The notes under the pieces are model-generated. The model did no database searches and was not told the origin of the DNA. It saw nothing but the letters and a program-made list of their open reading frames with translations. A DNA stretch of 64,000 nucleotides from Owenia fusiformis (taxonomy: Eukaryota > Annelida > Polychaeta > Sabellida > Oweniidae): the NCBI GenBank assembly GCA_903813345.2, contig CAIIXF020000012.1:31812501-31876500 (forward strand). The letters are read 5' to 3'. Both the position numbers and the translations under genes were made by a program. Every line of letters begins with the position of its first letter. Position 1 is the stretch's first letter. Of this stretch, positions 2,231 through 53,647 are shown in pieces.

Positions 2231-5200
2231 TTTTACAGAATGCTTATGAGAAGCACTACTCCAGTGTTAGTGTGAATGTGGTTGATTGCCCAGACCTAAC
2301 CCAGTCCCCCTTTAATCTAGCTGCTCCAGGTAAGAAAATGTCATTCTAAATTTACCCACTCTCTCTACCTACAAAACAAGTGGGGTGGGTGGGCACGAAA
2401 AAGATTAAGGGAAATATAGATTCAGGGAGCCTTACTTTATCATACTTTGTAATTTGATGTAATTTTGCAACCTGGCTTGTTTATTTTTTGTAAATGTTGT
2501 AACTTAATTGTAGAAAATTTGGGACTAACTTTTGGAAATTTACCCCAGAAAGTTTGATTTATGAAATGATAATCCTGTGTTTCTTGAAAATAAGTCTTTA
2601 AAAGACCCCTGCTATCAGAAAGAAAAATACACTGTATAGGAACTTTAGTTATACTTTCCATTTTCACTGCCCAACTTTTTAAAAATCATATCACAGGTCT
2701 ATGTGGTAAAACTGCAGTGACAGATGTGGGGGGTGTACCCAATCTTCATCCTTTAGTGGACAGATCTAAGGTACAGTACATTTATATATATTTTGCATTT
2801 ACATGATCATCCAAACTTCAATTTTGAAGTACATGAAAATAATAGCATGTGGTTTGGATCACTAATTTCTGGAAATCATTGTTGCTTAGATCTTTGACAT
2901 TTGGTAATATCCATCTTGCTCCTAAAAAACACTTTTGAAAAAATTTAGAAACCTTAACTTTCAATCAATTAAATGGCGGTCCACCTTTATTCTTTTAAAA
3001 AATGGAGGTGTTCAACATACATTGGACATTGTGTTCGGCTGGAGCTGCCTTACTCTTGATATACATCCTGTGAACTGTTAAAGGCCCCATATAAAGTTTA
3101 AACCACTTTGGTTTATATAACAGTCTAATATCCAAGGTTATCAAAATGTAATATATGAATTTGTTTTTCAGTTTACAAAGTTTTTTTCAAGCACTGATTT
3201 TGTTCGAAAAATCATGAAATTAAAACTGCATGCATGAATTGTAAATAAACATATAATTGACTGTTTTTCTAGATCTACAGTCTAGATAGGGTGGCCAGGC
3301 AAGTGGAGATTGATGATGTATTCCTGGTGGGTGCTGGGGCGGGTCCCTGGCAGACTGAGGGTGTCAACTGTGAGGTAATACAATGTTTCATCCCCAGGCC
3401 TGTAGCCGGGGGGTTTGAGGGGTTTGATCCTCCCACATGCATTTTTTCACCATTCTGAGCATTTTTTAATTGGATTTAGGCCAAAGTTGTCAAATGTACA
3501 CCCCCTGGGCCTGATAAAAAAGGGGTTCAATCACAACAGGCAAAAATATATATTCTTTCTAAGAATTTCCTGTTGCCTTGAGGATACTTTCTGTGAAAAT
3601 TGCAAAATCTCAAAAAAAGATTTCCTGACCAGCTGTTGTCAGGAAACCAAGGCCAACTCAGGGGGTAGGGGGTGAATTTGCTTTGGGGTAATTCCCTCGC
3701 AAATTCACTCTCTATCCCCTGAGTTGATTCATTGATCAGGCTGTTTTATTAAACAACAGGTATTTTCCCCCAAGTTACAATGCAAATATTAAAGAATCAG
3801 CCTGTCACAATATCTTTATTTAATCATTTTCATTTACAACAGTGTTCCATACATGTACCTCGTTGTTCATTCACCATATATGGTTACAACAGTTTTGAAC
3901 ATTGTGATAAGAGTGACCTTGTTGTATGTTTGTATAGATGGTTACCAATATAAAGACAGGGGCAGATGCAAAAAACAACACCCACATATCGAAAGTGGAC
4001 CCCAGTGATGGCTCTTGTATACTTAAGAAACCAGAGGGCACTGATTTTGCTCTGATGGCTAACTTATTCTGCTCACAAGGAAAACCAGGAAAGGTGAGTC
4101 CAAGATTTTGCCCAGTGTAGTGTAGTGTAGTGGTATACTTAAAAAACCAGAGGGCATTACTCGAATTAGAACGTATTCTGTTCATAAAGAAAACCAGAAA
4201 AGGTAAATGAAGATTTTGCTCAGTGTAGTGTAGTGTAGTTGTATACTTAAAAAAGAGGACATTGCCCCAATGAGTAACTTATTCTGCTCATAAGGAAAAC
4301 CAGAAAAGGTAAATGAAGATTTTTCTCAGAGTAGTGTATTGTAGTGAAGGATAGTGTAGTGGTATACTTAAAAAACAGAGGGCATTGCCCCAATGGGCAA
4401 CTTATTCCGTTCATAAGGTAAACCAGAAAAGGTAAATGAAGATTTTGTTCAGGGTAGTGCATTGTAGTGTAGGATAGTGTAGTGGTATACTTAAGAAACT
4501 GATTTTGCCCTGGTGGCTAAATTATTCTGTTCACAAGGAATCCAGGAAAGGTAAATCAAGATATTGCTCAGTGTAGTGTAAATGTAGTGTAGTGTAGTCA
4601 AGTGTAGTGTAGTGGTAAACTTAAAAAAACAGAGGGCATTTCCCCAATGGGCAACTTATTCAATTCATTAGGAAAACCAGAAAAGGTAAATGAAGATTTT
4701 GCTAGAGTAGTGTATTGTAGTGAAGGATAGTGTAGTGGTATACTTAAAAAACAGAGGGCATTGCCCCAATGGGCAACTTATTCCGTTCATAAGGTAAACC
4801 AGAAAAGGTAAATGAAGATTTTGTTCAGGGAAGTGCATTGTAGTGTAGGATAGTGTAGTGGTATACTTAAGAAACTGATTTTGCCCTGGTGGCTAAATTA
4901 TTCTGTTCACAAGGAATCCAGGAAAGGTAAATCAAGATATTGCTCAGTGTAGTGTACATGTAGTGTAGTGTAGTGTAGTGAAGTGTAGTGGTATACTTAG
5001 AAAAACAGAGGGCATTTCCCCAATGGGCAACTTATTCTGTTCATTAGGAAAACCAGAAAAGGTAAATGAAGATTTTGCTAGAGTAGTGTATTGTAGTGTA
5101 GGATAGTGAAGTGGTATACTTAAGAAACTGATTTTGCCCTGGTCGCTTAATTATTCTGTTCACCAGGAAAACCAGGAAAGATAAATCAAGATATTGCTCA

Positions 5201-6983
5201 ATGTAGTGTAATGTAGTGAAGTGTTGTGTAGTTGTACACCTAAAAAACAGGGCATTGCCCCAATCGGTAACTTAAATTAGGATATTGCTCACTGTAGTTT
5301 AGTGTTAATTAACATGTTTATTTCAATATATTTCAGGTCTTAGAAATCAAGGTCAGGTGTGGAACTTCCAAGGTTCGTAACTTCATGAACGTTGCAAGAC
5401 TCGGCCTCCAGGCTCAGTACGGAGACAAACCAGTGGCTCTTGGGGGAACTTTCCTGGTGGAGAAGGGGAAAGCACACATTCATATTATGGTAACTTACAT
5501 GATTGCCTTTATGGGAGTGTCAGCCTAGTAATCTACATGTACATTCTCCTATGTATACTAGAAATACATGTTATTATCCCACCCTAAGTGCTTTATATGA
5601 ATGTATAATAGCATTGTATAACTGCAATATAAAACCAACACTCATCTTATACATCTCTTTAGAACGATATACAACTGGGTAGCGTATACAACTGGATAAT
5701 AAGATTATATAATGGTCGTAGTATATCGTTATACTCGTGAGTATATAATATATTCACGTGTGACAGAAGGGAACGAGTGAATACAGAATCAACCATTATA
5801 TTACCTCATAATATACACTTGAATGCTGATCTAAATTATCCCAAAACTAGTGGACAGAGAGATTTTAGGCATGACCTAAAAGTTTTGTCCTGGAAATGTT
5901 TGAATTATATTCATGGGTTTATTATGTCATCACCAGAAGTGGTGACATATTGTTATAGTCACCAACTTTTTGTGGATGGTTTTCGGCAGTTAGTGTTTGT
6001 TGTTGGGTGGTTAGTATTCCTCGTTCAGCATCTGTAACAAATGGCAGGTGGTGACATTTTGCAAGGTGATGCAAATACAGTGTAAAACCTACTGGATTCT
6101 AAATTGCCAAATTGATGTCTTTGAGGCTGTCAGTGCATCGATTTTACATTTATTTTCAGAATGACTTTTTAACGACACCATTAGATTCAGATGAGAAAGT
6201 TGAAAAATGGCTTAATTTCTATGAGATGTCTTCTCCCCTAGTCTGTCTTGGGTATCTTATTTCACATGACCCAGTAAGTACTTGTATCGTATATGTATAC
6301 AAAGTTTATAGTAATATGAAAGTTCATCTAATCTTATCTTAACTCATGTTTGGAATGTAAGATACATGTACATGTGAGTCAAGTGAAGAAACTGTAATTT
6401 AGGTCACACCTTTGGCTTAAAGTGACATGCAAAAGTGATAGCTCATAGTCAAGTCAAATCGGTAATTAGTGTCAAGCCAAAGCAATATCTCATAGTAAAA
6501 CAAGTCAATACCTTAGTGTATAGCCAAAGCAATATCGCACAGTCAGGTCAAGTCAGTACCTTAGTTTTGAAGCTAGACGAATAATTTCTAATCAAGTCAG
6601 TACCTTAGTATCAAGCCAAAGCATTATCTTACATTCAAGTCAAACCAGTACCTTGATTCTGAAGCCAAATCAAAATATTAGAGTCAAGTCAGTTCCTTAC
6701 TGTCAAGCTAAAGCAATATGTCATCATCAAATCAGTACCTTAGTGGTATCAAGCAAAGGCAGCTCAGACTGGTGTTCTCAAGTTGGTATCATTCTTTTAA
6801 TATTTCTAGGATCTAGACCTACGTATCGAACACTTCCATTGCTTTAGTGAACATGGTGAGGGGGGTCACTACCACTGGGATACCACCCCCCAGGAGGTTG
6901 AATATAGGGCATACTTCAATGTGGCAGAGAACATATATAGGATAGATAGACCAACAGTCTCTCATCAGATTGGCAGGGATTAG
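2231..6983 (+). CDS. C11orf54: Ester hydrolase C11orf54 (PTD012/DUF1907) homologue, 5' end missing
   Basis: Seven exons chain in one frame: 2231-2329, 2697-2770, 3273-3374, 3938-4093, 5337-5489, 6160-6273, 6810-6983 (stop TAG at 6981). All introns are GT-AG and phases agree. The visible product is about 289 aa, against about 315 in human, so roughly 20-25 N-terminal residues are missing. Recognisable blocks in order are VNVVDCPDLTQSPF, LCGKTAVTDVGGVPNLHPLV, VGAGAGPW, VDPSDGSCILKK, ANLFCSQGKPGKV and the C-terminal RIEHFHCFSEHGEGGHYHWD. The His-x-His-(x9)-His spacing in this last block matches the zinc-binding triad known from the human structure. Human C11orf54 is a nuclear/cytosolic zinc protein with esterase activity on model substrates. 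The start is unresolved: the acceptor at 2230 (phase 1) needs an upstream exon. An in-frame ATG at 2173 without an intron is possible but does not resemble the family N-terminus. Intron 4 is filled with copies of the preceding exon end. An AATAAA lies at 7286. Confidence 0.9.
3390..3555. repeat. 'GTAGCCAGG'-family MITE-like copy in intron
   Basis: The sequence begins CAGGCCTGTAGCCGGGGGG and contains the shared internal block 'TTTTTCACCATTCTGAGCA ... GGCCAAAGTTGTC ... CCCCCTGG'. The same block recurs at about 7430-7560, 32787-32972, 44725-44870, 50576-50728 and partly at 53850-53960. The family ends look hAT-like. Confidence 0.55.
3655..3735. repeat. Short palindrome (hairpin) in intron
   Basis: AACTCAGGGGGTAGGGGGTG is followed about 40 bp later by its near reverse complement (CACTCTCTATCCCCTGAGTT), with GAATTTG/CAAATTC extending the stem. 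It is a strong stem-loop of unknown function, probably a fold-back remnant. Confidence 0.5.
4094..5300 (+). repeat. Tandem array of decayed copies of an exon 3' end and splice donor
   Basis: Starting directly after the exon ending at 4093, about ten copies repeat the last part of that exon (GTATACTTAAGAAACCAGAG ... AAAACCAGGAAAGG) with its donor. They are separated by runs of GTAGTGTAGT. Copies begin near 4133, 4241, 4362, 4494, 4615, 4738, 4861, 4991, 5113 and 5233. Most keep a GGTAAATGAAG or GGTAAATCAAG donor-like end. A higher-order unit is also visible: the block at about 4362-4615 recurs at about 4738-4991. Confidence 0.85.
5918..6068. repeat. 'GTCACCA' MITE copy 1, in intron
   Basis: This 150-bp element runs from TATGTCATCACCAGAAGTGG to GGCAGGTGGTGACATTTTGC. 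Reverse-orientation relatives lie at about 22229-22382 and 26641-26787. All contain the 'TTTGTTACAGACGC'-like block and end in GGTGACATA/TATGTCACC inverted ends. Confidence 0.6.
6390..6760. repeat. Degenerate intronic minisatellite (about 60-bp unit)
   Basis: Words such as GTCAAGTCAGTACCTTAGT and AAGCCAAAGCAATAT recur about six times with poor spacing in the last intron of the C11orf54 homologue. Confidence 0.6.
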
Positions 6984-7854: not shown

Positions 7855-9230
7855 AAGAAAACCTTAACTCTACAAAAATTCTGTAAATGACCCAATGAAT
7901 GTTAAAATAAACGAAACAAAAAACAGCAATTACCAGTGCAATAAAAAATAGAATACGAGAAAATGTATTTTATTAAAACAAATTAATATGTGAGTTCACT
8001 ATATATGTATATATATGTACATGTCTGTATATAATTGCATTTTAATTCTGTTCTGAACTTACATTGTACATGTATGCTATAAAGAAAAAATGTAAATTTG
8101 GCTGTGATTTTCTGTGACACAGAACAGTGTTTCATTACATGAGACATTTAATGTTAATAAAACCAATCAGAAAATAAACAATTGTGTTTTTTATTGTTTT
8201 TAAAACAATATAGCAGATTGAATCTACACAAAGACCTACAAACAAGGTTTCAAAAATGTAAGAATGACATCATTTATGCAATAGGTGACATGCTTTACTA
8301 GATTCAACTAATAAATGGACTTAGTTTGAACAGGATTTAAGTTAATATACAAAATCAAAATTGACAAAAATATATTTATAACGCAATATTTTGATAACAC
8401 ATAGCTTACTCAAATTAACATTGACGTAAGTTCATTGTATTAAATACATTCTATATTCATAAAGAATATGCATAATTTGTCTTTAAAATGTTAATGATTA
8501 CAATTACAAGAAAAACATCTTATATTAGAATAAATTTAATGATAACGTGTCATCAACTTTTAGGGGCTAGTCAATTGGACGAACTACATGTATGACCCTG
8601 TTTGCGTATGACGCCATATTGTAATTTAAATAAATTAGGCATTATATAATATAGTCAGTTATATGCCACTCTGGATTTAATAATGTCAATCTAAAATATA
8701 AAACAGAGAAATCATTTCATGATGTAAATTAAAACTCAGAACTACATCGTGGTAAAACTACATGTATTTTTAATGAACGAAAATCGTCCAATAACGCTTA
8801 CATATTGACGTAGCGTGTCCGGAATGTTTTAACCTTAAGACACAAGAAAATAAGGATCATGAAATACTTGAATTGCTTTTGTCGAAGTGGCTAGCTACAT
8901 AATGATACGCTGGGTATATACAGAATTTACAGCAAGCATTTTATATACAATTGAGCAAGTATTTGTCATGATTTAATCATAAATTTTTAATTCATATTTG
9001 AATTTATTAGTTATTACATTGTCATTGTAATGTGTACACGACTTTATATTATCACTTGGTGATATTACAGAGTAAGAATAGGAAAATCTACCTTGCCCGA
9101 TATTATTTTTATACATGTAATGAAATACATACATTGTATCTATTGTTGCATAGGTTCACTTATTTTTACCATATTAGGTCAAATACAAATTTTATGTCAT
9201 TTTATTTTGAATTTGGTCGAATACTGTTTC
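7855..9230. other. AT-rich intergenic spacer
   Basis: No exon, RNA gene or organised repeat is supported here. The stretch lies between two convergent genes. Confidence 0.5.
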
Positions 9231-10109: not shown

Positions 10110-10320
10110 GGTTACTCAGTTCTTTTCAATTTGCTGTAATTTTGCATTGCATTGCATCTTCCGAAGAGCATTACATATTTTACATCAGTCCTCTTTACAT
10201 TAATCTTATAGTGACTTCAGACGTTTAGCTATCCCGTTCTTTTCAATCTATTTTAATTTTGCATCTTCTGAAGAGCATTACATTTAAATCAACCCTCTTG
10301 ACATTAAATTTTAGTAACTT
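10110..10320. repeat. Tandem duplication at the SEC14-like A 3' end
   Basis: A block of about 105 bp (GTTCTTTTCAAT ... TTTTGCATCTTC ... GAAGAGCATTACAT ... AGTGACTTC) occurs at about 10115-10220 and again at about 10233-10320. The second copy contains the stop codon region of the SEC14-like gene, so the first is a duplicated, non-coding copy of the coding end and 3' UTR. Confidence 0.7.
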
Positions 10321-13300: not shown

Positions 13301-16300
13301 TGTCCTCAAATCTAAAGTATTTAGCACTTTCGGCCCTTCCCATATTATTCTGTTTCTCAAAAGTCTCATTCCCAGGATTCATTTCTAGAACTTTTTCTCT
13401 ATCGATACCCTCTCTCAAAACGGTCTGAAAAGCCTAAAATGCATGGACATAATGCCTGAACTTCTATACGTTTCTATAAGATCTACTAGAAACCGTAGAA
13501 CACAAATCACTGACAACTAAGCAATAAATAATAATATCAAGGGCATTGGCGGATCCAGGGAGGGATGCCCCCCTCCCCCTTCTGTGGGCCCAGAAACAAA
13601 TTTAGGGCCCAAAGAATTTCGTGGCCCATACATTTGTAGGGGCTCAAAAAGAGGGGGGCTGGGCTTTAGTAAAACATATCACTTACTTCCCAAAACCTGG
13701 ATTTTCTGCTTGGTGTGCTCACTCATTAACGGTCGAGCAACCTTCCATAGTAAAGGGAAGATTCGAGGTGCTAGAATAAAATTATTATTACATTTATTTG
13801 GTTAGAAACAAAAATAACAACAACAACATATGATTGAAACACACAATGATTTAACTTACGAATCAATGCAAGGGGAATGGAAGGGGATGCTAGCTTATTT
13901 GGATATTGTGGATTCATTTTCTCATGACCAATCTTATATTTATCCAAATGCTCATTTTCTATTTGACTTTTAATGCAGTTTTGCTTTTTAACCTTGGAGC
14001 ACATGTTAACATATTTCTTCATCTACAACATTATGCCATTGTTTAGAAATTAGAAAGATAGTGTTTAAATCAGTGAAACTGTAGTCTACGGTGTATACTG
14101 TATGTCGTTATAAATGTTGCATTCTTAATAACAACCATTTTTGGGACATTTCGTATGGGATCGAGAACTGAAATTTGTACACGAATAAGAACACTACACG
14201 ATAACGTACCATTTATTACAAACATCTGTTTCATCATTTCTGGATAATTGTCTTCTAACGTCTTCACTAACTGGAGATACATCTGTAAACCTACAAACAT
14301 TGAGAAATAAAATACAGAATTCCTAAGAGTGATAATTTAAAGATGCAATTTCATTGAACAGCATGCAACATATTGGACCATCAAAAAACTAGTCCAGTAA
14401 AACATATTTTCTATTCGTAATGAAGTCATTCTTATATTTTCAGAGTGGAAATATGATTTAAAAAATTAAACTTTTACAATTTAGGAACACTGTTGCCTGC
14501 AACGCATGGTATTTTAAATCTAGCCAAAATATGCCCTTCAATATCTCTTTTTAATTTTTAAAGGACGATTAATTACATTTTCAAACTGTAGTAAGTATAT
14601 GCAGAAACCTTCAGAATCCAAGTGTTGTTAGACTCAGTGAAAGGAAATGCACATTCAAAATTCTTGACCAATAATTTTCATTTCAGCTATTCTTCAAATT
14701 ATAGTTGTTTGTGAGAATCATACCTATACGTACAATACGAGAATAGACAACATTTGATGAAATGAGAAGCACAACGTTCAAGACTCTTTGGACAACCCTC
14801 GTACATTAAGATACTTTTTTAAAATATATTAAATTATTTTAAACGCACCTGGTCGCCATAGCATTCCAGTTCCGACGTTCTCCATGTCAAACAATACAGT
14901 CAATCCGTGAACATGTTTGCCAAGCTATAGGAGAACAACACAATGTAAAACTTAAGTTCATTGTAGAAGTTTATCATTTTATATTTTAAACCGCACCTTC
15001 ATTAGTAATTGAAAACAAAATATAGAAATTGTATTTGCATTGCTTTGAGAGAAAATTGCTTTGAATTCCATCGTATATTTATAACTACACACCTTTTTAG
15101 TTTGTTTTTCCCATTCTCTCACTACTAGTTCATTGTGGTATAACTTCGATTTAATCAGATCCTCTTGTTTCACTGAGTACATGATTCCCTTCATGTCTAA
15201 CTGGCCATATTTTTCAACTCTAATAGGAGAACCCTCTTTGTCATATCCAAGTAGACCTCCCGTTAGATATTTTTGTATAACCTACAAAGAAAATCATAAT
15301 TACATCCAACTGGCCACATTTCTCAACTTTAATAGGAGAACCTTCTTTGTCATATCCAAGTAGACCTCCCGTTAGATATTTTTGTATAACCTAAAGAAAA
15401 TCATAATTATATCCAATTAGCCATATTTTTCAACTTTAATAATGATACAAATATTAACAAGGTTCATATAATAATTTTTGATTGCATTATTTAGATTTTG
15501 GCCTTTGTGTTTCTACTTGTGTAAGAGGAATTGAAATATCGTGAACGTTTTGGATAAGAAAAGCTAATGTGAGCAATGGTGTGCTCTATAGAAAGACCCC
15601 GGATCATGAAACCAAGAAAAAAGTTTACCTCTGGTGGGGTGTAGTCATCCAAAAGTGTGTCGAGTTTGTATTTTTCCCGGAAATCCAGATGCTGAATAAA
15701 AAAGTAAAGCATGTATTTTTAATTCAAAATTCTTATTAAGATATTTTTGTTGTTCTAAAGAAATGGATGTTTATGGGGTGTATTTACAGGAGTATATACA
15801 CAATTTGTGTGACCTTTTTCATGTTAATTGATGTATACTGTCTCAGGATATTAAAATTAATACAGATAAAATTGGACACCGTGTATTCTTACATTGTTAT
15901 CCAGAAGTGGCTGTTTTATGGGATGTATTGCACGTAGGGGAATATACGCAACCTGCGTATCCCTTTTCATGTAAGTTCTTGTACACTATTTTAGAATTAA
16001 TAAATAAAAATAAAATTTTGACACCATTTATCTTACATTTTTATACATTATTTCTGCCTTTTCCACATCGAAATCTCTGGCTTTCAGCCACTTCATTAGT
16101 TTGAAGTCATTGTCTCGAGGGTCTAGAATATCCAACACCTGCATTTTGAACTGCAATTACATAATATTAACTTTATTTTACGTTATGTAACATTATTCAA
16201 CGTTACATTACGTTATGTTACGTTACGTAACGTTACATTACGTTATGTTACGTTACGTTACGTTTTGTTACTTTACGTTACATTATTTTACATTGAGGTA

Positions 16301-31100: not shown

Positions 31101-34100
31101 CTTTTTTGTAATTACAATAAACAAATTGTAGAAGTGATATGTATATGAAAAATTGTCTGTCAATTTAGAATTATACAATGTACACCTGCTGACAATTTCA
31201 ACTCAAATGGTTGAGAAATCTTGAAATGGCAGACCAATTCCCAGAACTTAATGATCACCCTGTATTATACCACCCAGGTTTAAGCATAAAAATTGTAAAA
31301 AAGTACATAATATGGAAATAAATGATGTTCAAAGATATCTTAATGTTTTCAAACTACAGTATCAGTGTAGGAAGGGAGATGTTGTTTATACTGTTATTTA
31401 GAATAAATAAGGGCTATGTACTGGGAGGTTTTGGATATGGGGTTTATCCAGAGGGAGATATGCATATCTACCTGAGGGACCGTAGGGACCAAAGGAAGAT
31501 GTGCATAGCTCACAAGGGATGAACCCAATATCCGAACCGACCGTACATAACTGCTTTATCCTATACCAAGTAGAGTTTTCAGGGGCATATGGCCATTTCA
31601 ATAGTACAAGGTGTAAAAATAAACAAATCATTCATGTGCAAAGCCATTTTATTGCATTTCCACTACTTACCGGAAGCGGGAAGATATGCACCGAAGCGGG
31701 AGATATGGCGGGAGATATGGAGGTTCTGGATATGGAAACCTCAAAATCAGGATACGGGATATATCTTACCAACTTATCTCCCTATAAAACTCTACTTGGC
31801 ATACGATAAGTGTGCATATCTCAACATGATTATTATACAGTAGCTCCCATTTTCATAAATAAATATATAAAATAAAATATGAATGGAAATCAGAGGCAGA
31901 CACTATTCATATCGAGTTGCCCATAAAATTGTAGGTTAATCAGGTAACTGCCGATAGCCATTAGTTGCTTTCACGTGTACTTTTCCAAGACATTTTATAA
32001 GCTTAATGATTGCTTTTGAAAGATTTATTAGTAATATAAGGTTATTATGAGAAATTGTGATGAAGGAGTATGACTGTTTATGCATATGCAATGTCTCTTT
32101 AATTTTTTTCATCTAATAGTGATTCAAATTCAAAAATCAGAATTATATTAGTTCAATACAGGAAGACAAATTTTGATCACAATATTTTGTTGGTGCCCCA
32201 ATAAAATGGCCCTTTAAATTAAGTTTTATTTAAAAAAAGTGTTTCGTAGATATCAAAAACTTAAATAAAATGTTTCTAATAAAGTATGCAATATTATATA
32301 ATACTCAGACCCATTTTTATCAAAATCTGGCCTAAACTTAAAAATAGAATCCAGTAATAGCCTTTAGGCCTTTTTTGGCCCAGCATTTTTTCTGCCCCCC
32401 CCCCCCCCCAAAGATTTGCCAGTGATTATGATTTAGGAGAAATTATTGTTTTGCACTCAATTAGTCTCACAATTTCTAAAGGACATAGCACACAAACTTT
32501 ATCATTATATCGTCCATATACAGTTACTGTAGATTCTAAAGAACTTAATCCTGCACAATTTAAAAGATGGGGGTCAAACAGGATTAAACCTTCACCCCAA
32601 GGACAGATGTAAGATGTAAGTAACTTACCATTACATATCAAGCAGTATTTAAGAGTTTCTGGATAAAAATCTTCCAAGATAACAAACAAGGCTTGAGCAA
32701 GTTCTATACCTGGAAATATCAGTAGAGATGAAGACAAAGAAAACACTTCTGCAAAGTTAGCATATGTATTAAAGACATGAGAAAGGCAGGCCCGTAGCCA
32801 GGAGAGGGGGGTCAAGGGTTCAAGCCCCCTGGCCGGAAATTCCTTTGAAATCATGCAGTTTTTCACCATTCTGAGCACTTTTCAAGTGATTTTGGCCAAA
32901 GTTGTCGAAAGTGAACCCCCTGGATTTTTTTAAAAAGTGAACCCCCTTGGCAAATCCTGGCTACGAGCCTGAGAGGATAAGTGAAAACAACAAACAAGGC
33001 TTGTGCAGTTATCTACCTAAAAAGTGCAAATTAAATCCAGATTGAGATTCAGATTGCAGACTAGAATAAAGAAAAAGCAGAGATGAAACACATCTAAAGC
33101 ATCAGTCACATTTGCTCTATGGTGACTGTACTGCAGCTGCAGCTTCTCAAAATCGATATAGAAAATCGACATCATACTGCTAATCCCCATATTCTGTGCT
33201 TCCTATTTCTCTTGATTTTGGGAAGCTACAGCCGTCGTATGGTTGCCGTAGATCAAATGTGACTGAGACATAATGCAACCATTCTCCATAGCAGATTCAC
33301 AAGTTGGAGGTTCACTCCCTTCATCATTACATCTTACCATTAAAAAGAATAATATTCTTGGTAGTTTCGGGATAACGAGATTCAAATATCTCCAACACGC
33401 CATTGAAAATTTCTAGACCTGAAATGCATGCAAAAACAATGGGTCAAATAAGGGGGGGGGGTGGAATAATCTACCATAATTGTGCCATGGTACAATTGTG
33501 CCATTGTACTCTGACAAGGATCTTCATGTAAATATTATTCTCTCTTTCATTGAACAATTATGACTTACATCGTTACATCATCAACATCTTCTATGCTCTG
33601 ATTGGTCAGAAGCATTCATTGACTATTTCCCTAATCAAACCAAATAGATGTTTCAAAATTTTGTTCAATTTTACAATCAACAAAATGTTTGTTTCTGGTG
33701 TATTTCAGCAATGTTTGGACTTGCTATTTTACATGAAGATACAGAAATATGTAAGCAAAAATGTGATATCAAATAAAAAATGACTTGAATAAGGGTAATA
33801 CAAAATGCTAAGGCAAAACACAACCATCAACAAACACAATTACAGAACACAATTACAGAACAAAATGTGATATCAAATAAAAAAAATGACTTGAATAAGG
33901 GTAACACAAAATACTAAGGCAAAAAACACCACCATCAACAAACACAATTACAGAGCCAACATGTAAGCATTAATACCAAACTGTTGCATGCTCTAACAAT
34001 TTAACTAAAACATTTAGAAAACAAGGCCAGTAAAATGATATACAAAGATTTACATGCAAATGCTACACATATAGAGTACATGTATGCATATATTCTCAAG

Positions 34101-37100
34101 AATGCAGTAATTATGTCAAATATTATATTTACACATTTATGCTAACATTCTACCTAATAATTGTCCTTGGGAAAGTAAAAATACAAATATTTCTATCATT
34201 ATACTTAATTTCAAATTTGCTCATGTTGGTATTTAACCTGATATTGTTGAATGACATCATTTCATCACACAACAAAAAAAACAAAACATACTGACCTGGT
34301 CTCCAAAGATGTTGTATTCCAAGCTTCTCCAAATCAAACACTATTAGTAGTTTATCTATCTTTTTACCAAGCTGAAAAATAAGATTGTGGAGAAGTGACG
34401 AGAACCTGTAGTCTACAAGCAACTAATCAAGTGCTGAAATATGAGATTGCGGAGAAGGGTCTAAAGTCTACATGCAAATAATACCTTGCTGAAATATGAG
34501 ATTGCAGAGAAGGGTCTAAAGTCTATATGCAAACAATACCTTGCTGAAATATGAGATTGCAGAGAAGGTTCTAAAGTCTATATGCAAATAATACCTTGCT
34601 GAAATATGAGATTGCAGAGAAGGGTCTAAAGTCTACATGCAAACAATACCTTGCTGAAATATGAGATTGCAGAGAAGGTTCTAAAGTCTATATGCAAATA
34701 ATACCTTGCTGAAATATGAGATTGCAGAGAAGGGTCTAAAGTCTACATGCAAATAGTACCTTGCTGAAATATGAAAATATGAGATTGCAGAGAAGTGTCT
34801 AAAGTCTACTTGCAAATGATACCTTGCTGAAATATGAGATTGCAGAGAAGGGTCTAAAGTCTACATGCAAATAATACCTTGCTGAAATATGAGATTGCAG
34901 AGAAGGGTCTAAAGTCTACATGCAAATAATACCTTGCTGAAATATGAGATTGCAGAGAAGGGTCTAAAGTCTACATGCAAATAATACCTTGCTGAAATAT
35001 GAGATTGCAGAGAAGAATCTAAAGTCTACATGCAAATAATACCTTGCTGAAATATGTGATTGCAGAGAATGGTCTAAAGTCTACATGCAAATAATACCTT
35101 GCTGAAATATGAGATTGTAGACGAAGACCTAGTAAAATATGGCATTTTGAGAAATGAGGAGAGATGTCACTTTTATTGATTCAAAAAGCGATTTAGTCAA
35201 TAAGGATATTACATGTATTGACTTCAGCAGACAGTGCAGCAGACCAAAGGGCATCCCTGAGAAAGATTTCACCAGTTAATTAACTGTGCAAAAATGGATG
35301 CCCCATGTACGATTTGAACCCGAGCCCTCTAAGTTCCTAATCTAATGTTCAACTCCTGAGCTACAATAGCCTACGTTAGAGAAGATAAGGGTTGGTAAAA
35401 ATTGCTAGGCTGTAAGGAATGTTAATAGGGAGACTAAATAAGTATAATTTTGAAGAATGTGAACATATAAAATCATGGTTCCCTGACCTTTATTTGCAAT
35501 AGTGAAAGTGTAATAAGGAAAATAAGTGTTTATTAGGTCCTGTATGAACTCATGGAAAAGAAGAGGACGATAATTCCTGGGGATCATAAAATTACACATT
35601 CCCGATCCTGTTCTCAAATACATATGTTACTTTACCTCTCTAAAGAAATGCCTCTATATGTATTCAATAGAGAACAGCACCAACCTTTTGTGACTGCTCT
35701 GCCATCTTTCTGTAGCATTGTTCAACACATCTGACTTTGTATTTAATAATGTCACTCTTCTTACTGGAGTAGCAGATACCTGGAAAGTGAGAATTTTTGC
35801 ACATGCTTTTGAAATATGAAAAAATGGCCATCCTTAATATAATGCCAATCATGAGAGATCACCAATAGTGGTTGAAATGTATCAAATTGATCTTGAAATT
35901 CAACTTCAACTTGAATAGTATTTTAGAATAAAGTGGAAACTTGATGTAAACAGTTATGGTAAAAGGCAAGTGTATTCTAAGTAAGTGTACAGTTTACAGC
36001 TATTGAATGAGTGAATGAATGAGTGAGTGAATGAGTGAGTGGATCTAGTAAGCTAATCTTACCTTTTAAATCGATGCAACCATAGGGGTCCCACCATATT
36101 GGGCAGCCCTCCTTATCAGCCCCCATTACACCGCCTGTATAATATATTCTACACACCTCAGGAGGGTTGAAGTCTTCAAATATTCTGTCAACACCCAGTT
36201 CTTCTCTCCACTTCAAGTTCTGTAAGATAGAGTTTGAGAATTGCGATTTTTGAATAGTGAAATCAGTTTGAGTAAAGATGTGAGGTTAGAGTGGTGAGGT
36301 TAGTTTGAGTGAAGAGATAAATTTAAGCGGTGAGGTCAGTTTGAGTGAAGAGGTTAGTTTAAGTGGTGAGGTTAGAGTGGTGAGGTTAATTTGAGTGGTG
36401 AGGTTAATTTTTAGGGATAAAGTTAGATGGTACCAGTTAGATAGAGAAGAATAGTTTGAGTGATGAGTTAAGTTTGAGTGAATAGTCAAATTTGACAAGT
36501 GAGGTTAGTTTGAGTGAAGAGGTCAGTTTGAGGTAATGTTTGAATCAATTTTAGGATATTTGTTATAGAATTGATTAAAATATAACTTTCTTACACTTCG
36601 CAACATATCTGCTGATTTCTTCAAGTCAAAATCTCTAGCTGAAATGGAAAAAACATCATTAAAATAAACAAGCCAACGAACAAACAAACAATAAAGAAAT
36701 AAACATTTATTTTAAAATTGTTTGGTTGAATAAAAATCAACTAGGGACTTTCCTGAATTAAAACATGACAATTAACAGAGTAACATTTTGCACTATAGAA
36801 ATACATGACAGTTATTGCAATTTGGCAAATTGAAAGTGATTAAATGGGCAAATGGGCAAGAAAGTAAGTGATTCAATTAAGGCTTTCTATATATTCCAAA
36901 AGTATTACTCAGTCCAAAGAAATATTCCTTATATCCCTACCTCTGAGCCACCTGAGTAAATAATGGTCATCGTGATGGGGCTTTATGACATCACAGAGTT
37001 CTTCTTTAAACTGAAAATACAAAAGTCGCTGAATATTATAAGCAGAAATGACATATCTTAGAGAATTTGAGTTTCATTAAAGATGCAACAAAGATGATTG

Positions 37101-39100: not shown

Positions 39101-42100
39101 ATGGCGGAAATACAAATACTCGAAGAAGATTCTCCCTGTTCAAAGGCTATATCTTGTCAGAATGAGGCAAATGTAAGCATGAATGCTAATCAAATGAGTC
39201 TTATTAGTCTTGGTCATAGTTTGGAATGTGAATTATTGTCTCGATTTGCATAATTTTCTCCAAATAAATGTTGTCAGTCAGTGTCAGATTTTTTCGATCT
39301 CCAACATCATGAACCAAGGGCAAAAAATGACATCACTCCCTCAAAAATGTCATCACTCTTCTCACTTTGATTATTTAATATATGAATGGAGGATCAGATT
39401 TATTTTCCAAAGACATGGGTAATTGGAAAGAGTATATAAATCGGTGTCTTGGATTTGCTTTCAGAAAAGTTCAGACTCTGATAGTGACGAGAGTATTCCC
39501 ATAGTGAAGAAACCACGAAAGACACGAAGAAGGATACACAAGGCTGCTGCCACTATAGATCTCGATGATGACACTCCCATCTATGAGAACAAAGGCAAAG
39601 AGACCTTTCATGATATTGGAATGAACCTTGGAAATGTTGACAAAGAAATAGCAGATGAGGACAAAGGTAAACTGTTGATAAAATTATTAATACAAAAATA
39701 TCAAAGAACAGAAGGGAATTAGAACTGATTTGAAATTCATCTCACTGCATTTGAGATTTAACATGGAATAGGATAAATTATATACATGTTTAGATGGTAG
39801 TTACTAGAATATATTTTCAATGGGAGGCCAACAATTGAATTTTACCACGGCCTTCCTAGTATGTTAAATATTGTTATATAAAATTATGCAAAAAAATAAA
39901 ACTTAACCTTAAAATATATTTTCAATGAAAATTTGCAAGGGTCAAGTTGCATAGTTGGCAAAATATTAATTTCAATCTCACCCTATGCTTAGTGAGCGGA
40001 CCTAATTTCAAGGGTGATGGTAAGACGAGGCATGGCGCCCAAAAACCAAAGAATATTAGTACCATAATCTTTTAAGTCGTATTATTGCAGCATTAGGTGA
40101 TGATATTGTGATATTTTATGCTGTTTTAGAAGTGAAAGATGTTAAACTATGCATACTGTTTGTTTTACATCCAATAAAACGAATAGTTAAGATGAAACAG
40201 TCGTTTAAAGATACAATTTTAATTTACCGCAAGAAATTACAACATAATATTGTCAATATGTCAATAATTCCTGATCGATGTCACATATTAAGATATATGT
40301 ACCTAGATATGTTTTATTTTTTCATATATGCGAAATAAGGCGGTCTCTAGTTATGTACATCCAATACAAAATGAATGTTTACTATTCGGCGATCAGAATT
40401 TCGATGACGAGCGATGGCGATGTAATTTGCGAAGAAAGCATCAGTGCACCTAGTTACAGGCCAGGTTTGGGCGCCATGCATCGTCTTTACCATCACCCTT
40501 GAAATTAGGTCCGCTCACTAAGCATAGGGTGAATCTGTAGAGTCAAGTTGTCACCTTGATAACTGTGCAACACTTGGATGGATTGTTGGTTATACATTGT
40601 ATAATGCAGTGCAGTTATATGAACAACTGTGTTTTGATTGGCTGTAATGGGACACACCTTGCCTAGCTATGTGTGAATTGCAGCATTATATCAATGATTT
40701 TATCTTTGAAATTATTTATATATAAAGGAGAACCTGTGTAAGTGGAACACCCTTGGGACGACTAAAAAGGTGTTCCACTTGGTAGGTTTTTTACTTACAG
40801 AGGTTCATTAACATAGAGAAGATAGGTCATGGGATTTTAAAAACATGGTTCCACTTGTGAGGTGTTCCATTTACAGAGGTGCTCCACTTGCCAGGTTCTT
40901 CTGTATATTTATATACAGTTAAACACTCTGGGATTCTTTACCAGATATTGATAGTTCTGAAGACCATTGTTTTGATACATTGCAGATACCTATGAAGAAG
41001 ATATTTACTCAAAGCCACAGAGCAGAGCAAAACCACTCAATCAGAGGAGAACATCACACAATAAAAACATCATTCCGAAACCACACTCGTCTGAGGTTAT
41101 AGCCTGTAGCAGTGACGAGGATGACTCGCAAAAACGGTACTTATTTTTCTATATTTTGAAGATTTAAGGCAGAGTCAGGAATATTGAAAAGGCTTGTTGT
41201 CATAATGTGCTGATGGTCTTGTTGACAGTTCGCCATAAGGAATCTTGACATTAAAGATACGACAAAATGTTTTTTCTTGAATAACTTCACAAATCAACAT
41301 CATACCACTGATGTTTTGGAGATATTATATTTGAGATGATATAAAATGAAAATATATAATTAGGATGTAGGTTAATTGTGTTGCTTACAATTTTGATTAT
41401 GATTTTTTTGTAGCAAATATTTGACCTTGCAGTTAATACTGCAGAAATGACAACACAACAGTAATTGTTTGAAAATACAGCCAATAAAACTTGCCCTAGT
41501 ATTTCATTATTTATTGTCACTACATCTAGTTATGCAAGCCTCACTTGGCCATACACTCTCAACTATGTAACACCTATGTACGTCAATTCATATATGTCTG
41601 TCAAAATGGCTCATAATGTCAAATTGACTGAGCCACAGATTTAAATATTAAGAAAATAAAAAAACTGCATTGATTTTGTTCTTCTTTTTTTATTTTAGTG
41701 TATCTCGACAGAAGGAGTTAAGAAACTCCCCCTCACCCCCATCACCCCCCTCACCCCCTACGTCAATTCATATATGTCTGTAAAAATGGCTCATAATGTC
41801 AAATTGACTGAGCCACAGATTTAAATATTAAGAAAATAAAAAAACTGCATTGATTTTGTTCTTCTTTTTTTATTTTAGTGTATCTCGACAGAAGGAGTTA
41901 AGAAACTCCCCCTCACCCCCATCACCCCCCTCACCCCCTACGTCAATTCATATATGTCTGTAAAAATGGCTCATAATGTCAAATTGACTGAGCCACAGAT
42001 TTAAATATTAAGAAAATAAAAAAACTGCATTGATTTTGTTCTTCTTTTTTTATTTTAGTGTATCTCGACAGAAGGAGTTAAGAAACTCCCCCTCACCCCC

Positions 42101-45100
42101 ACCACCCCCCTCACCCCCTACGTCAATTCATATATGTCTGTAAAAATGGCTCATAATGTCAAATTGACTGAGCCACAGATTTAAATATTAAGAAAATAAA
42201 AAAACTGCATTGATTTTGTTCTTCTTTTTTTATTTTAGTGTATCTCGACAGAAGGAGTTAAGAAACTCCCCCTCACCCCCATCACCCCCCTCACCCCCTA
42301 CGTCAATTCATATATGTCTGTAAAAATGGCTCATAATGTCAAATTGACTGAGCCACAGATTTAAATATTAAGAAAATAAAAAAACTGCATTGATTTTGTT
42401 CTTCTTTTTTTATTTTAGTGTATCTCGACAGAAGGAGTTAAGAGACTCCCCCTCACCCCCACCACCCCCCTCACCCCCCTCAGGCTACATGGGATTGCAG
42501 ACCAGGCAGCATATACCAAAGAAGCTGACAAAAGCAATAAGGTATGGGTACAGCATAAACAATATTTTAATTTAAAGTATGACCTGATCGATTGCAAACT
42601 TCATATTTGCACATTTGATGAGATATACCATTTGTGGCATATTGTGAAATTATTTAATTTGCAATCAATTCAGGTCATAAGCGTATTTTGGTATTTGTGT
42701 GATAATCAATTGAAACTAATCAACAGATCTCAACAGATTGGCAGAACTAAATTTTAACATTTCCAACACAGATCAGCAGTCAGTTGCTCTTATAGCTGAT
42801 AGATCACTGGTTCACAAAAATGCCATTAATGGCTCCATGCAAAATTTGAAAATATGTTTTTATCATTCATTTACAGCTCAATAATTTAACTCTTTTCTTC
42901 CAGTGCAATTGATAAAGTAACAAGTTTGAGAAACACCAATCCATCCTGTGGTCCTAATGGTGACATGAACACATCATCTGATATCATTGCAGTTGAGTCC
43001 CCCATGAAGGACCCGGATGAACGAGACTTGGATGTCAAGTTTAAAGGCAGGGAAGGAGTTGAACGTTATTCCATGAAATATGTAAGCATTAACCTGAGAG
43101 GTTGGGATATGAAATATATTTCATAGAAATATCTCATACCCTTGGTACAAAGGACCTTATATACCCTCCATTGGGGTCTCCCCATGAGAAAAAAATAATT
43201 CATCTGATTTTTCAAAATAAAAATACTGCTTTTATTATTACATTTATATGTACACTAGTATCTTTTTGACCTATATTCAGCACTGTATTGATGAATGGGC
43301 CACTCATTATAAGGGCCAATATTCAATCATAAAGTGTACAGGGGTCGAGATGCCAAACCAGGAAGTGTTTTTGTGTCTGTCAAAATCCATTTGCATCCTA
43401 CACATCCCTACATCTTATCCAAATATGTTATTAATTAATGAAACATAACAGTATAATCTTTGGATTTACAAAGTTGTATGGGATTTCATAAGTGTAAAAG
43501 TTGCTTTTGAAGCATTTTCCTATAGTCATCTTGTAGGAAAAAAATGATGAAAAAAATGTCTAATCCTTTAATTTGAAGTATGACCTGAATCGATTGCAAA
43601 CTTTATATTTGCACATCTGATGTGATATACCATTTGTGTCATATTGTGAAATTATTTAATTTGCAATCGATTCAGGTCATAGTGTATTTTAGGTATTTTT
43701 GTGAAAATCAATAGAAACCAATGGCCTCCATTGGAATCTGATGATATCCACATGTTAAGTCAATGGAGCACATCCAATGGCAAGTCAATACACCCTTGCT
43801 GAACTTAATGACCTCAACCTCAGCCCATGTGGGTCCAAACGCTTAAATATTTTCCACAGTATTATGTGACATTGTATTCTTTATGTTACACCTAAAAATG
43901 ATTCATTTTGTTCATGGGGAGATCATAATGGCGGGTGCACTAGATCCTTTTTGTTCTCAAAGCACCTCCATTTTGCAATTCTTTTGCAATACTCATTCAC
44001 TAATAATTCAATACTAATTAGGTACCAACATTTTGTGCACATTCATCCTGATTTTGTACAAACATCCATCTTCAATCATTGTGGTTAGAGTTACACAATG
44101 GGTTTAATTGCTTTGTTAAGACTAAAAAATTGTAACTGTAGCTTGAAAATTCCATGCTTTTCTTGTACTTACTTTTTTCTATGATAGTCCACAAGACCAG
44201 GAAAAAACCAAACGCCCTTATCAACATCGTTCCTGTTTAGAAATACCAACGAAGGATTTTTGAGGTAGTAATATGGGCATGGAACTCTAACAATGTACGA
44301 ATATTTGAATATATGATTGCAGAAGCAGAATTTTCAACTTGTATTCGAGTGCATATGTGAGAGAAATGGCGTCTCTCAGGATGAGGTTGTTGTCTTCCTC
44401 GGGGACAGAACGGTTCAGAGTTACGATTCTCCAAAATCTCTGAACTTAAAAATTACAGATATAATAGGTAAATGTTCAACTTATTTACAATGTATTTACA
44501 GTAACAGTGACGAGTCAATTACTATGCCTGATCAAACTCCAATGAGACCAACCAAAAGTGTTTGGATTGACGTTTGTTCATATTCATGTTTCTTGAACAT
44601 TGTTATGTAGAGTAAAATTAAAATTGGGTCAGAAAACAAACTTTCACATTGATTTTTGTTCAGGTTAGAGAGATGTTTGAATATACTGTACATACCAGAA
44701 TATACAGATCCTACAGGCCAGCTTTTGCTTAGAGGGGTTCATTTTTTTAAAAATTCCAGGGGTTCAAATTTGAAATGTTGGCCACAATCACTTGAAAAGT
44801 GTTCAGAATGGTGAAAAATGCACGATTTGAAACAATATTTGGTTAGGGGGTCAGAGGATTTGCTTGCACTCCTCTAACCCCCCCCCCATGTATGATTAGC
44901 CAATCAGAGAACAGTATTTTGCCTGTTAAAGCCATGCTTTTATCTTTTAGAATACAGAATTGCTCAACGTGGTGACCAGGACACGTCATTGAATAACAGC
45001 TTAGATCCATCTGTCATATCTCTACACCTTCAAGGCCAGAACAGAAAGCAGAAACTTACAATACCTGTTAATATGGTAAGCAAGAAATATCTGTTTTTAT

Positions 45101-49419: not shown

Positions 49420-50160
49420 GAGGAAACCGGACAACCCAGCCCCTGGACAATTACAGCCCGTAGACAATTACACCCCTGGACAATTACACCCCTGGACAAC
49501 TCAACCCCTGTGCCACATCTCATCCCCTACAGGACAATTAAAACTTTCCATGCCATGTTAACTGAAAATGAAATGTTTACTGCATTTATAGGAAATACAT
49601 TATTTTAGAGTTGCTCATAATGAAACATAATCCTCGCTTAATTGACACAAAATTGAAGTTCCACTTGGAAATGTAAGCCGACATGTAAGAGTCGGTCGCA
49701 CTGACAATTCTTGTTTTTTGGCAAAGTTTATATTTTCAACAAAAACTGACATTTTAAGTAGTTTACTTGAAGCTAAAACAAATGGCAAATCCAATGAGTC
49801 ATAATCGATCAACTCATTTTCAGAGCTATCTTATGGGAGTTTAAAAATTAAATTAAAAGACATTCATGCTAAGCACTGTCTTAAATATGAAAATTAATAT
49901 AAAAAAACATACGATTTTGAATCTAGTATTGTGTAAAATCTCCTCAATTTAAAAAGTAAAAAATGAATATTCCCACAGATAGAATTTTTTGAAATCATTT
50001 GAAAGGCAAACTTGAATGAATATTATAAGAAAATTCTCACAAATGAAGTCTTATCCGGGAGATGAGTTGTATAGGAGTTGAGTAGTCCAGGAGATGAGTT
50101 GTCCTGGAATGGTTTATCTAGGTGTTAAATAACTAAGGGGTAAGTTGTCCGTAAAGCCTG
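49420..50160. repeat. Element with GGACAACTCAACCCCTG subterminal repeats
   Basis: The left side has several copies of CCCCTGGACAATTACA and GGACAACTCAACCCC. The right side has their inverses (GGAGATGAGTTGT, GGAGTTGAG, GGGGTAAGTTGTCC). Multiple short inverted subterminal repeats around an AT-rich core suggest a non-autonomous DNA element. Confidence 0.5.
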
Positions 50161-51780: not shown

Positions 51781-53640
51781 ACGTGTTACAGATCCAGGTC
51801 TGTCCACGTGATCCCTGCTACACATGACACATAGAACGCAAAACCAAACATGATGCATTCATAACTAGTGTGCATTACATGTGTAAAATCTCCTATAGAT
51901 GCACCTTATTTTAAGATTGCCTATATAAGTACATGTCTAAATAAATTAATCCATTTCTGGTGTTACAGGTGCAGGTCTGTCCTGTTACACATGCGACAAA
52001 CAGAACACAACGACCAAACATTTTATATTCATAACTATGCATAACAAATGTAAAATCTCCTATAGATGCAATTATTTAACATTGCCTATATAAGTACGAG
52101 TCTAAATAAATTAATTCATTTTCTTGTGTTACAGGAGCAGGTCTGTCCTGTTACACATGCGACACACAGAACACAACGAACAAACATTTTATATTCATAA
52201 CTATGCATAACAAATGTAAAATCTCCTATAGATGCACCTTATTTAACATTGCCTAGTATATAAGTATACATGTCTAAATACATTAATTCATTTCAGGTGT
52301 TACAGGTGCGGGTCTGTCCTGTTACACATGCGACACACAGAACACAACGACCAAACATTTTACATTCATAACTATGCATAACAAATGTAAAATCTCCTAT
52401 AGATGCACCTTATTTAACATTGCCTATATAAGTACGAGTCTAAATAAATTAATTCATTTTCTGGTGTTACAGGTGCAGGTCTGTCCTGTTACACACGCGA
52501 CACACAGAACACAACGACCAAACATTTTATATTCATAACTATGCACACCAAGTGTAAAATCTCCTATAGATGCACCCTATTTAACATTGCCTATATAAGT
52601 ACGAGTCTAAATTAATTAATTCATTTTCTTGTGTTACAGGTGCAGGTCTGTCTTGTTACACATGCGACACACAGAACACAACGGCCAAACATTTTACATT
52701 CATTACTATTCATAACAAGTGTAAAATCTCCTATAGATGCACCTTATTTAACATTGCCTATATTAGTATACATGTCTAAATAAATTATTCATTTTCTGGT
52801 GTTACAGGTGCAGGTCTGTCCTATTACACATGCGACACACAGAACACAACGACAAAACATTTTACATTCATAACTATGCACAACAAATGTAAAATCTCCT
52901 ATAGATGTACCTTATTTAACATTGCCTATATAAGTACATGTCGAAATAAATTAATTCATTTTCTAGTGTTACAGGTGCAGGTCTGTCCTGTTACACATGC
53001 GACACACAGAACACAACGACCAAACATTTTACATTCATAACTATGCATAACAAATGTAAAATCTCTTATAGATGCACCTTATTTAACATTGCCTATATAA
53101 GTATACATGTCTAAATAGATTAATTCATTTTCTGGTGTTACAGGTGCGGGTCTGTCCTGTTACACATGCGACACACAGAACACAACGACCAAACATTTTA
53201 TATTCATAACTATGCATAACACATGTAAAATCTCCTATAGATGCACCTTATTTAACATTGCCTATATAAGTATACATGTCTAAATAGATTAATTCATTTT
53301 CTGGTGTTACAGGTGCGGGTCTGTCCTGTTACACATGCGACATACAGAACACAACGAACAAACATTTTATATTCATAACTATGCATAACAAATGTAAAAT
53401 CTCCTATAGATGCAACTTATTTAACATTGCCTATATAAGTATACATGTCTAGATAGATTAATTCATTTCAGGTGTTACAGGTGCGGGTCTGTCCTGTTAC
53501 ACATGCGACACACAGAACACAACGACCAAACATTTTATATTCATAACTATGCACACCAAGTGTAAAATCTCCTATAGATGCACCTTATTTAACATTGCCT
53601 ATATAAGTACGAGTCTAAATAAATTAAGTCATTTTCTGGT
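51780..53640 (+). repeat. About 12 tandem copies (168 bp) of a Ly6 exon acceptor and exon start
   Basis: Acceptor-plus-exon starts (GTGTTACAG|GTGCAGGTCT) occur near 51785 (diverged), 51963, 52130, 52297, 52465, 52632, 52800, 52967, 53138, 53304 and 53471, before the true exon at 53648. Each copy encodes AGLSCYTCDTQNTTTK, then departs from the real exon into ATTCATAACTATGCATAAC and a possible AAAT|GTAAAA donor, followed by intron. Copies are about 95% identical, so expansion is recent. Confidence 0.95.
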
Positions 53641-53647
53641 GTTACAG

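What the first reader, a model, noticed from the sequence alone, without database searches (positions are those of the whole stretch)
4017..53647. Splice-junction-seeded tandem arrays in all five genes of the window
Five independent arrays each start on an exon-intron boundary and multiply it: exon end plus donor (C11orf54 homologue), exon start plus acceptor (SEC14-like A, NFATC2IP homologue, Ly6-type gene), and an acceptor-anchored minisatellite (SEC14-like B). Random intronic minisatellites would rarely coincide with splice sites this often, and duplicated 3' gene ends add two more cases (10110-10320, 54285-54545). A shared mechanism is possible, such as duplication seeded by R-loops or stalled replication at splice junctions, or retention because copies provide decoy or alternative splice sites. 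The coincidence is seen in sequence; the mechanism is inference.
Basis: partly seen in the sequence, partly recalled or inferred. Interest (0 to 1): 0.85.

Follow-up and report, generated by a model that had tools for sequence, protein, structure and literature searches.

The report
Splice junctions multiplied into intron repeats
In this animal genome, short stretches straddling the edge of an exon have been copied many times over into the neighbouring intron, more often than random placement predicts in the genes sampled, much like the "mirage" repeats described in a few lancelet genes.

Summary
The observation largely holds. In 4 of the 5 window genes (C11orf54-like, SEC14-like A, NFATC2IP-like, Ly6-type) a tandem array has a unit that straddles a real splice junction; the outermost copy serves the gene and the others lie in the intron. 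SEC14-like B is not a case: its array stops 43 bp before the acceptor. Arrays straddle the boundary; they do not start on it.

The window alone is weak evidence: 4 of 8 intragenic arrays against 1.41 expected (P=0.032). I sampled 28 ten-kb gene stretches of the same genome, chosen without seeing repeats. There 12 of 29 arrays span a junction against 3.66 expected (P=5.5e-5); without three exons that I found only because an array pointed to them, 9 of 29 against 3.50 (P=0.004). Placement within the host intron gives 11 of 28 against 3.72. Nine of 28 stretches hold a case.

Copies look neutral: exonic and intronic parts diverge alike, and decoy splice sites survive at background rate. Retention as decoys is not supported; R-loops and stalled replication are untested. 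Closest known: amphioxus "mirages". This appears to be the same kind, common in another genome; the cause of the bias is open.

The parts
3938..4093 (+). C11orf54-like (DUF1907) exon; its last 76 bp and donor are the founding copy of the array
   Evidence: exon model; Pfam DUF1907 E=3.5e-8; PDB 1xcr E=1.6e-20 for two joined exons
4018..5274 (+). array of exon end + donor + 47 bp intron, about 123-bp unit, 9 extra copies; next exon starts at 5337
15093..15281 (-). SEC14-like A exon whose acceptor lies in the array
   Evidence: Pfam CRAL_TRIO E=7e-5
15199..15441 (-). 109-bp unit, 2.3 copies: 26 bp intron end + 83 bp exon start
42419..42541 (+). NFATC2IP-like exon continuing from the last copy
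   Evidence: a later exon of the gene matches Rad60-SLD, E=1.9e-7
41579..42478 (+). 180-bp unit, 5.0 copies at 99%: 116 bp intron + 64 bp exon start
53648..53833 (+). Ly6-type exon continuing from the last copy
   Evidence: the next exon matches QVR u-PAR/Ly-6-like, E=9e-6, just under Pfam's cut-off; this one weakly, E=0.004
51814..53699 (+). 167-bp unit, 11.2 copies at 92%: 115 bp intron + 52 bp exon start
36263..36532 (-). SEC14-like B minisatellite: NOT junction-spanning, 43 bp from the acceptor edge of exon 36063-36219
10119..10304 (-). two-copy duplication at the 3' end of SEC14-like A
   Evidence: 10119-10200 and 10236-10304, 63 of 69 identical
54294..54531 (+). two-copy duplication over the end of the Ly6-type coding sequence
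   Evidence: 54294-54405 and 54425-54531, 91 of 106 identical

Best explanation
These are 'mirage'-type minisatellites. A short segment that straddles an exon-intron boundary is tandemly duplicated and then amplified. The outermost copy (first at a donor, last at an acceptor) stays the real splice junction, because only it joins the rest of the exon; the other copies are spliced out with the intron and drift while the array turns over. In the sampled genes the process hits boundaries about three times as often as random placement predicts, chiefly in arrays of four or more copies. SHOWN: the anatomy at donors and acceptors, the excess in a sample, equal divergence of exonic and intronic parts, decoy sites about as strong as the real one in 12 of 17 arrays. 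INFERRED: that splicing passes over the copies, that they are neutral, and that the bias comes from duplication or expansion favouring exonic DNA, tolerated only at exon edges.
For: Four window genes. Sample: 12 of 29 arrays span a junction against 3.66 expected, P=5.5e-5; 9 of 29 against 3.50, P=0.004 without hand-added exons; arrays of 4 or more copies 9 of 14 against 1.95 (7 of 14 against 1.86). Within the host intron 11 of 28 against 3.72, P=1.9e-4. Both boundary types: 9 acceptors and 7 donors in the 16 arrays, plus one acceptor in L029. Splice dinucleotides kept 116 of 123 against about 112 expected; exonic identity 0.948, intronic 0.955. Unit length a multiple of 3 in 6 of 17. Amphioxus mirages match in anatomy (passages).
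Against: A per-base coverage test shows no excess at junctions: 8 of 296 junctions against 560 of 6008 random intronic points and 69 of 993 exonic points; I hold it to count array length, not founding events. Sample 2 alone, run with fixed rules, has 3 arrays (2 spanning, P about 0.06). Arrays of fewer than four copies show little excess (3 of 15). No RNA was available, so that the inner copies are not used is inference. In L013 the reading frame stays open through the whole array, so that array could be coding.
Confidence: 0.68

Rival explanations
1. A process aimed at the splice junction itself (R-loops, stalled replication, nucleosome edges, junction-linked breaks) seeds or expands the duplications.
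For: Excess at junctions even within the host intron; excess mostly in arrays of 4 or more copies (9 of 14 against 3 of 15, Fisher P=0.025, post hoc); intron-only arrays end within 5 bp of a junction in 4 of 36 cases against 0.8 expected.
Against: Duplication ends are not at the splice site: exon share of the unit 0.31-0.86, uniform breakpoints not rejected (KS P=0.11). Exon-biased duplication with tolerance only at exon edges would look alike, and two coding-end duplications without a splice site exist in the window.
Confidence: 0.2
2. Copies are kept because they act as decoy or alternative splice sites.
For: Median decoy score within 0.5 of the real site or above in 12 of 17 arrays by a simple score.
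Against: Splice dinucleotides are kept no more than other dinucleotides (116 of 123 against about 112) and exonic parts are not more conserved than intronic parts. Young copies would keep strong sites anyway.
Confidence: 0.07
3. Chance: ordinary intronic minisatellites, noticed where they meet exons.
For: The window alone gives only P=0.032. The coverage test shows no excess. In the 20-stretch sample with array-blind exons and junction density raised 1.3-fold, P=0.089.
Against: Sample of 28 stretches: P=5.5e-5 (0.004 without hand-added exons); same-intron null P=1.9e-4.
Confidence: 0.07
4. The arrays are tandem exons or coding repeats that enlarge the protein.
For: In L013 the real frame runs open 936 bp upstream through the whole array; in L015 (36-bp unit) it runs 101 bp past the donor.
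Against: Units hold one boundary only; 6 of 17 lengths are multiples of 3, as chance gives; no frame is open through two units in 9 of 17 arrays. In L020 the real frame is closed at once.
Confidence: 0.04
5. Assembly artefact.
For: Several arrays are 97-99% identical (NFATC2IP-like, L015 59-bp, L025, L029), so copy numbers are hard to assemble.
Against: Other arrays are diverged (C11orf54-like 83-85%; L015 36-bp array 89%), and an artefact has no reason to favour splice junctions.
Confidence: 0.03

Closest known systems
'Mirages': minisatellites spanning exon-intron boundaries in amphioxus (Adh3, globins BflGb6 and BflGb9, TnC, PGBD5)
   Same: Tandem repeats spanning a 5' or 3' boundary, outer copy intact, units of tens to about 160 bp, copies with AG/GT signals, homogenised clusters (passages of PMC3087553, and PMC3902484; the original Adh paper seen only as a citation).
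   Different: Reported there from a handful of genes, with RT-PCR support for normal splicing and with length and somatic instability. Here counted in a sample against a random-placement null, in a genome whose contig number does not fit amphioxus; no RNA and no polymorphism data.
[quoted passage not shown] potato RdRp case)
   Same: Tandem duplication of a segment holding exon and intron sequence (passages of PMC4974935).
   Different: There the duplication creates a new intron or exon; here copies sit inside an existing intron and no new intron is shown.
Variable internal tandem repeats at boundaries of human genes in segmental duplications
   Same: Minisatellite expansion changing gene structure, some at exon-intron boundaries (passages of PMC2812944).
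   Different: Units average 30 bp, half lie in coding sequence, and they concern recent paralogues.
Mutually exclusive exon arrays
   Same: Tandem copies of exon sequence in a gene; one such array of 12 matches is present here in a myosin gene.
   Different: Those carry whole exons with both splice sites; the arrays here hold one boundary and part of an exon.

Membership tests
Mirage minisatellite (as described for amphioxus) | Tandem repeat unit contains an authentic exon-intron boundary | tested here: met
   4 window arrays and 12 of 29 sample arrays; one more in L029
Mirage minisatellite (as described for amphioxus) | Both 5' and 3' boundaries can be duplicated | tested here: met
   9 acceptor and 7 donor arrays, plus one acceptor
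Mirage minisatellite (as described for amphioxus) | Does not disturb normal splicing of the gene | not testable with these tools
   no RNA data; the coding exons beside the arrays are intact in the models
Mirage minisatellite (as described for amphioxus) | Length instability between alleles or tissues | not testable with these tools
   one assembly only
Intron gain by tandem duplication | A new spliced intron arises from the duplicate | not tested
   no orthologues or transcripts compared; arrays lie in introns that already exist
Mutually exclusive or tandem exons | Each copy carries a whole exon with both splice sites | tested here: not met
   in the 17 arrays the unit holds one boundary and an exon part
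Coding tandem repeat | Unit length a multiple of 3 with open frame | tested here: inconclusive
   6 of 17 lengths are multiples of 3; of the three arrays checked in the real frame (L013, L015 36-bp, L020), L013 alone is open throughout

The most novel reading that the evidence does not exclude
This genome runs a widespread amplification process biased to exon-intron boundaries, acting mainly at expansion rather than birth of the duplication. If the sampled rate (12 of 420 exon ends) held throughout, thousands of junctions would be multiplied, lengthening introns with copies of splice sites as strong as the real ones. Mirages would then be a recurrent, lineage-independent mutational outcome and a standing store of new splice sites and introns.
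Probability: 0.35. Interest if true: 0.8.

Novelty: new member of a known kind. Interest (0 to 1): 0.58.

Why it matters
In the passages I read, mirages are oddities of a few amphioxus genes with an unclear origin. In the genes sampled here 12 of 420 exon ends carry one (210 exons), in 9 of 28 stretches. That would give enough cases in one genome to test how such arrays arise and grow, how the spliceosome passes over copies of equal strength, and whether they feed intron growth or intron gain. It also warns gene prediction and repeat masking, since the arrays contain true exon ends.

Tried and rejected
Point-coverage test: a 40-base stretch centred on a junction has a nearby copy (30 of 40 or more) at 8 of 296 junctions, at 560 of 6008 random intronic points and at 69 of 993 exonic points; cross-locus background 0 of 296. 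At face value this argues against an excess. I set it aside because every array fills its intron with copies of its unit, so coverage counts array length, not founding events (the exonic figure also includes a mis-modelled L013 exon that ran through an array). Event-based nulls replaced it. This choice was made after seeing the result.

Exon models: three exons (two in L007, one in L011) were found only because an array pointed to them; counts are given with and without them. Two copies modelled as exons in L007 were removed, the start of an L013 exon was moved to the last copy (the second, array-blind pass, also found 2894-3026), and an L015 acceptor was moved by one unit. False exons in L022, L024 and L025 were removed. 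Raising junction density 1.3-fold gives P=0.0006 with and P=0.024 without the hand-added exons; the first 20 stretches alone, array-blind, give 7 of 26 against 3.12, P=0.025, and P=0.089 with the raised density.

Rows dropped before counting: units under 29 bp (with units of 20 bp or more: 12 of 50 against 4.12, P=0.0003); arrays outside the span of annotated exons, among them a coding-looking one, L024:7334-7491; one array that TRF split in L015 was merged. L003:3702-3837 and L014:5974-6064 include only 4 bp of exon, and L015:6041-6120 copies a donor without being contiguous with it; none of these three is counted. The same-intron null leaves out L025, whose array lies beyond the last annotated exon. 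The kinesin cluster at C2:23266359-23269174 was left out of the sample because its repeat showed in the match list; it was read later as L029.

GC as the cause: spanning arrays have GC 0.380 (12), others 0.325 (17), P=0.049; the latter is near the intron average 0.334, so nothing shows that duplications favour GC-rich DNA within introns.

Breakpoints: of seven arrays examined, four with near-integral copy number have 0-2 bp of overhang; three could not be read this way.

One search used window junctions off by one base for three arrays; corrected, and the 116 of 123 is my sum of both. Families PF00650 and PF00501 were searched but not sampled.

Species: eleven contigs of 31.9-62.2 Mb plus C3 of at least 34.6 Mb make up over 95% of 498.3 Mb. 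This resembles Owenia fusiformis (505.8 Mb, 12 scaffolds; PMC9977687 passage). It is inference; COX1 gave no match. Amphioxus having 19-20 chromosomes is recalled.

Paper searches listed no report of mirages outside amphioxus; three of these lists were capped (15 of 98, 12 of 39, 8 of 42), and the library lacks most subscription papers.
Full report
What was claimed. I checked the sequence, annotated the genes, then asked whether the coincidence exceeds chance in this genome.

What is in the window. TRF lists 58 rows. I modelled 36 coding exons in five genes from paralogue matches, recognised peptides and splice-site scores; gene names rest on DUF1907 and PDB 1xcr (C11orf54), CRAL_TRIO (both SEC14-like genes), Rad60-SLD (NFATC2IP-like) and a u-PAR/Ly-6-like match just under Pfam's cut-off. 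Four genes have an array whose unit holds a real splice junction: C11orf54-like (donor after 4093; 76 bp exon plus 47 bp intron), SEC14-like A (acceptor at 15281, minus strand; 26 bp intron plus 83 bp exon), NFATC2IP-like (acceptor before 42419; 116 bp intron plus 64 bp exon, 5.0 copies) and Ly6-type (acceptor before 53648; 115 bp intron plus 52 bp exon, 11.2 copies). At a donor the first copy is the real junction, at an acceptor the last. The SEC14-like B array stops 43 bp short of its acceptor. Four intragenic arrays of unit 29 bp or more, that one included, touch no exon. Against random placement of units in the gene spans, 4 of 8 compares with 1.41 expected, P=0.032, weak for a window chosen because of it.

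Sample design. I searched three gene families with many exons, SLC6 transporters (PF00209), myosin heads (PF00063) and kinesins (PF00225), and chose by hand, from match coordinates alone, 28 ten-kb stretches (11 myosin, 9 SLC6, 8 kinesin); the first 20 hold 2 to 8 listed matches each. One kinesin cluster whose repeat was visible in the list was left out. Exons came from matches between paralogues with splice-site scores and a second profile pass. The counting rules were settled while looking at the first 20 stretches; the kinesin stretches were then run with the same rules.

Result. Of 29 arrays with unit 29 bp or more inside gene spans, 12 contain a junction with at least 8 bp on each side; 3.66 are expected if one unit is placed at random, P=5.5e-5. 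Without three exons that I found only because an array led me to them it is 9 of 29 against 3.50, P=0.004. For arrays of four or more copies it is 9 of 14 against 1.95 (7 of 14 against 1.86). The kinesin stretches alone give 2 of 3 against 0.47, P=0.06. Placing each unit only within its host intron gives 11 of 28 against 3.72, P=1.9e-4. Nine of 28 stretches hold at least one case, and 12 of 420 exon ends are spanned (210 exons). The 12 arrays total 8,279 bp, exon parts and one array beyond the last annotated exon included, beside 140,050 bp of annotated intron. Examples: an SLC6 exon end 'TWEIAPLFKG' plus donor, 36 bp, 20.8 copies and, in the same gene, an acceptor plus exon start, 59 bp, about 19 copies (L015); three arrays at three junctions of one myosin gene (L007); a kinesin donor, 91 bp, 16.7 copies at 99% (L025). 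The excluded kinesin cluster proved to be an acceptor plus exon start, 159 bp, 17.9 copies at 97% (L029).

A result that points the other way. A coverage test found a copy of the junction neighbourhood at 8 of 296 junctions, but at 560 of 6008 random intronic and 69 of 993 exonic points. Since each array fills its intron with copies, coverage does not count founding events, and I rely on the event-based tests; but the raw per-base figure shows no excess, and the choice was made after seeing it.

What the copies look like. In 16 arrays (9 acceptors, 7 donors) the exon share of the unit runs from 0.31 to 0.86, and uniform breakpoints are not rejected (KS P=0.11 on rounded values), so splice sites are not the duplication ends. 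Four arrays with near-integral copy number have 0-2 bp of overhang at the breakpoint; three others could not be read this way. Exonic and intronic parts diverge alike (0.948 and 0.955), and splice dinucleotides survive in 116 of 123 copies against about 112 expected. Six of 17 unit lengths are multiples of three, near the chance third. By a simple score the median decoy is within 0.5 of the real site or above in 12 of 17 arrays; it is weaker in four, and one has no intact decoy. One exception deserves note: in L013 the real reading frame stays open for 936 bp upstream, through the whole array, so use of an upstream acceptor would add 38-residue repeats; in L015 (36-bp unit) it runs 101 bp past the donor, and in L020 it is closed at once. 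Introns with such an array have a median length of 1,264 bp, of which 241 bp is not array, against 460 bp for others (10 and 172 introns).

How it most likely works. Shown: junction-straddling tandem duplication at donors and acceptors, up to about 21 copies, with the outermost copy intact, and an excess over chance in the sample. Inferred from established knowledge of exon definition: only the outer copy lies close to the other end of its exon, so the rest leaves with the intron. Inferred: the copies are neutral. The cause of the excess is not shown. Arrays below four copies show little excess (3 of 15), which hints that expansion rather than birth is favoured at junctions; that comparison was post hoc (Fisher P=0.025). 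The two coding-end duplications in the window hint that exon edges in general, not splicing as such, may be what counts. R-loops or replication stalling remain possible and untested.

Known relatives. Amphioxus 'mirages' match in anatomy: tandem repeats spanning either boundary in Adh3, two globin genes, TnC and PGBD5, reported not to disturb splicing, of unclear origin, with length instability (passages of PMC3087553, and PMC3902484). Related ideas are intron gain by tandem duplication (PMC4974935, passages) and internal repeats at boundaries of human duplicated genes (PMC2812944, passages). Six library searches (three of the lists capped) listed no report of mirages beyond amphioxus; the library is partial. 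The genome's 12 large contigs fit Owenia fusiformis (PMC9977687 passage) better than amphioxus, but that is inference.

Verdict. I file it as a new, apparently abundant occurrence of a known kind, with an unexplained bias that a whole-genome count could settle.

Noticed in passing
G000:C9:37986009-37994334 (-), partly in L001: Twelve matches in a row to the same part of the Myosin_head profile (about 18-84): probably an array of alternative exons of a muscle myosin heavy chain gene.
   Followed up: no
L029 (G000:C2:23265901-23270400), minus strand: Kinesin acceptor plus exon start, 159-bp unit, 17.9 copies at 97%, the last copy running on into the real exon; 18 of its copies appear as separate Pfam matches.
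   Followed up: yes
L017:3966-4097 and 4375-4559; L008 gene-strand 6449-6540 and 8423-8514: Whole exons present twice in tandem in an SLC6 gene and a myosin gene, candidates for alternative exons.
   Followed up: no
L013:1969-2975: SLC6 acceptor array whose real reading frame stays open through the whole array (936 bp); alternative acceptors would add 38-residue repeats.
   Followed up: partly
window 39978-40532: Element with perfect 46-bp inverted ends (39978-40023 and 40487-40532) in an NFATC2IP-like intron; looks like a foldback or MITE-type transposon.
   Followed up: partly
window 32429-32881 and 33330-33443 (-): Two stretches of SEC14-like B both match the same SEC14-like A exon (E=3.6e-5 and 1.4e-4): an alternative exon or a second gene copy.
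   Followed up: no
window 16200-16466: About 53 degenerate copies of the pentamer ACGTT, just upstream of the first SEC14-like A exon that I modelled.
   Followed up: no
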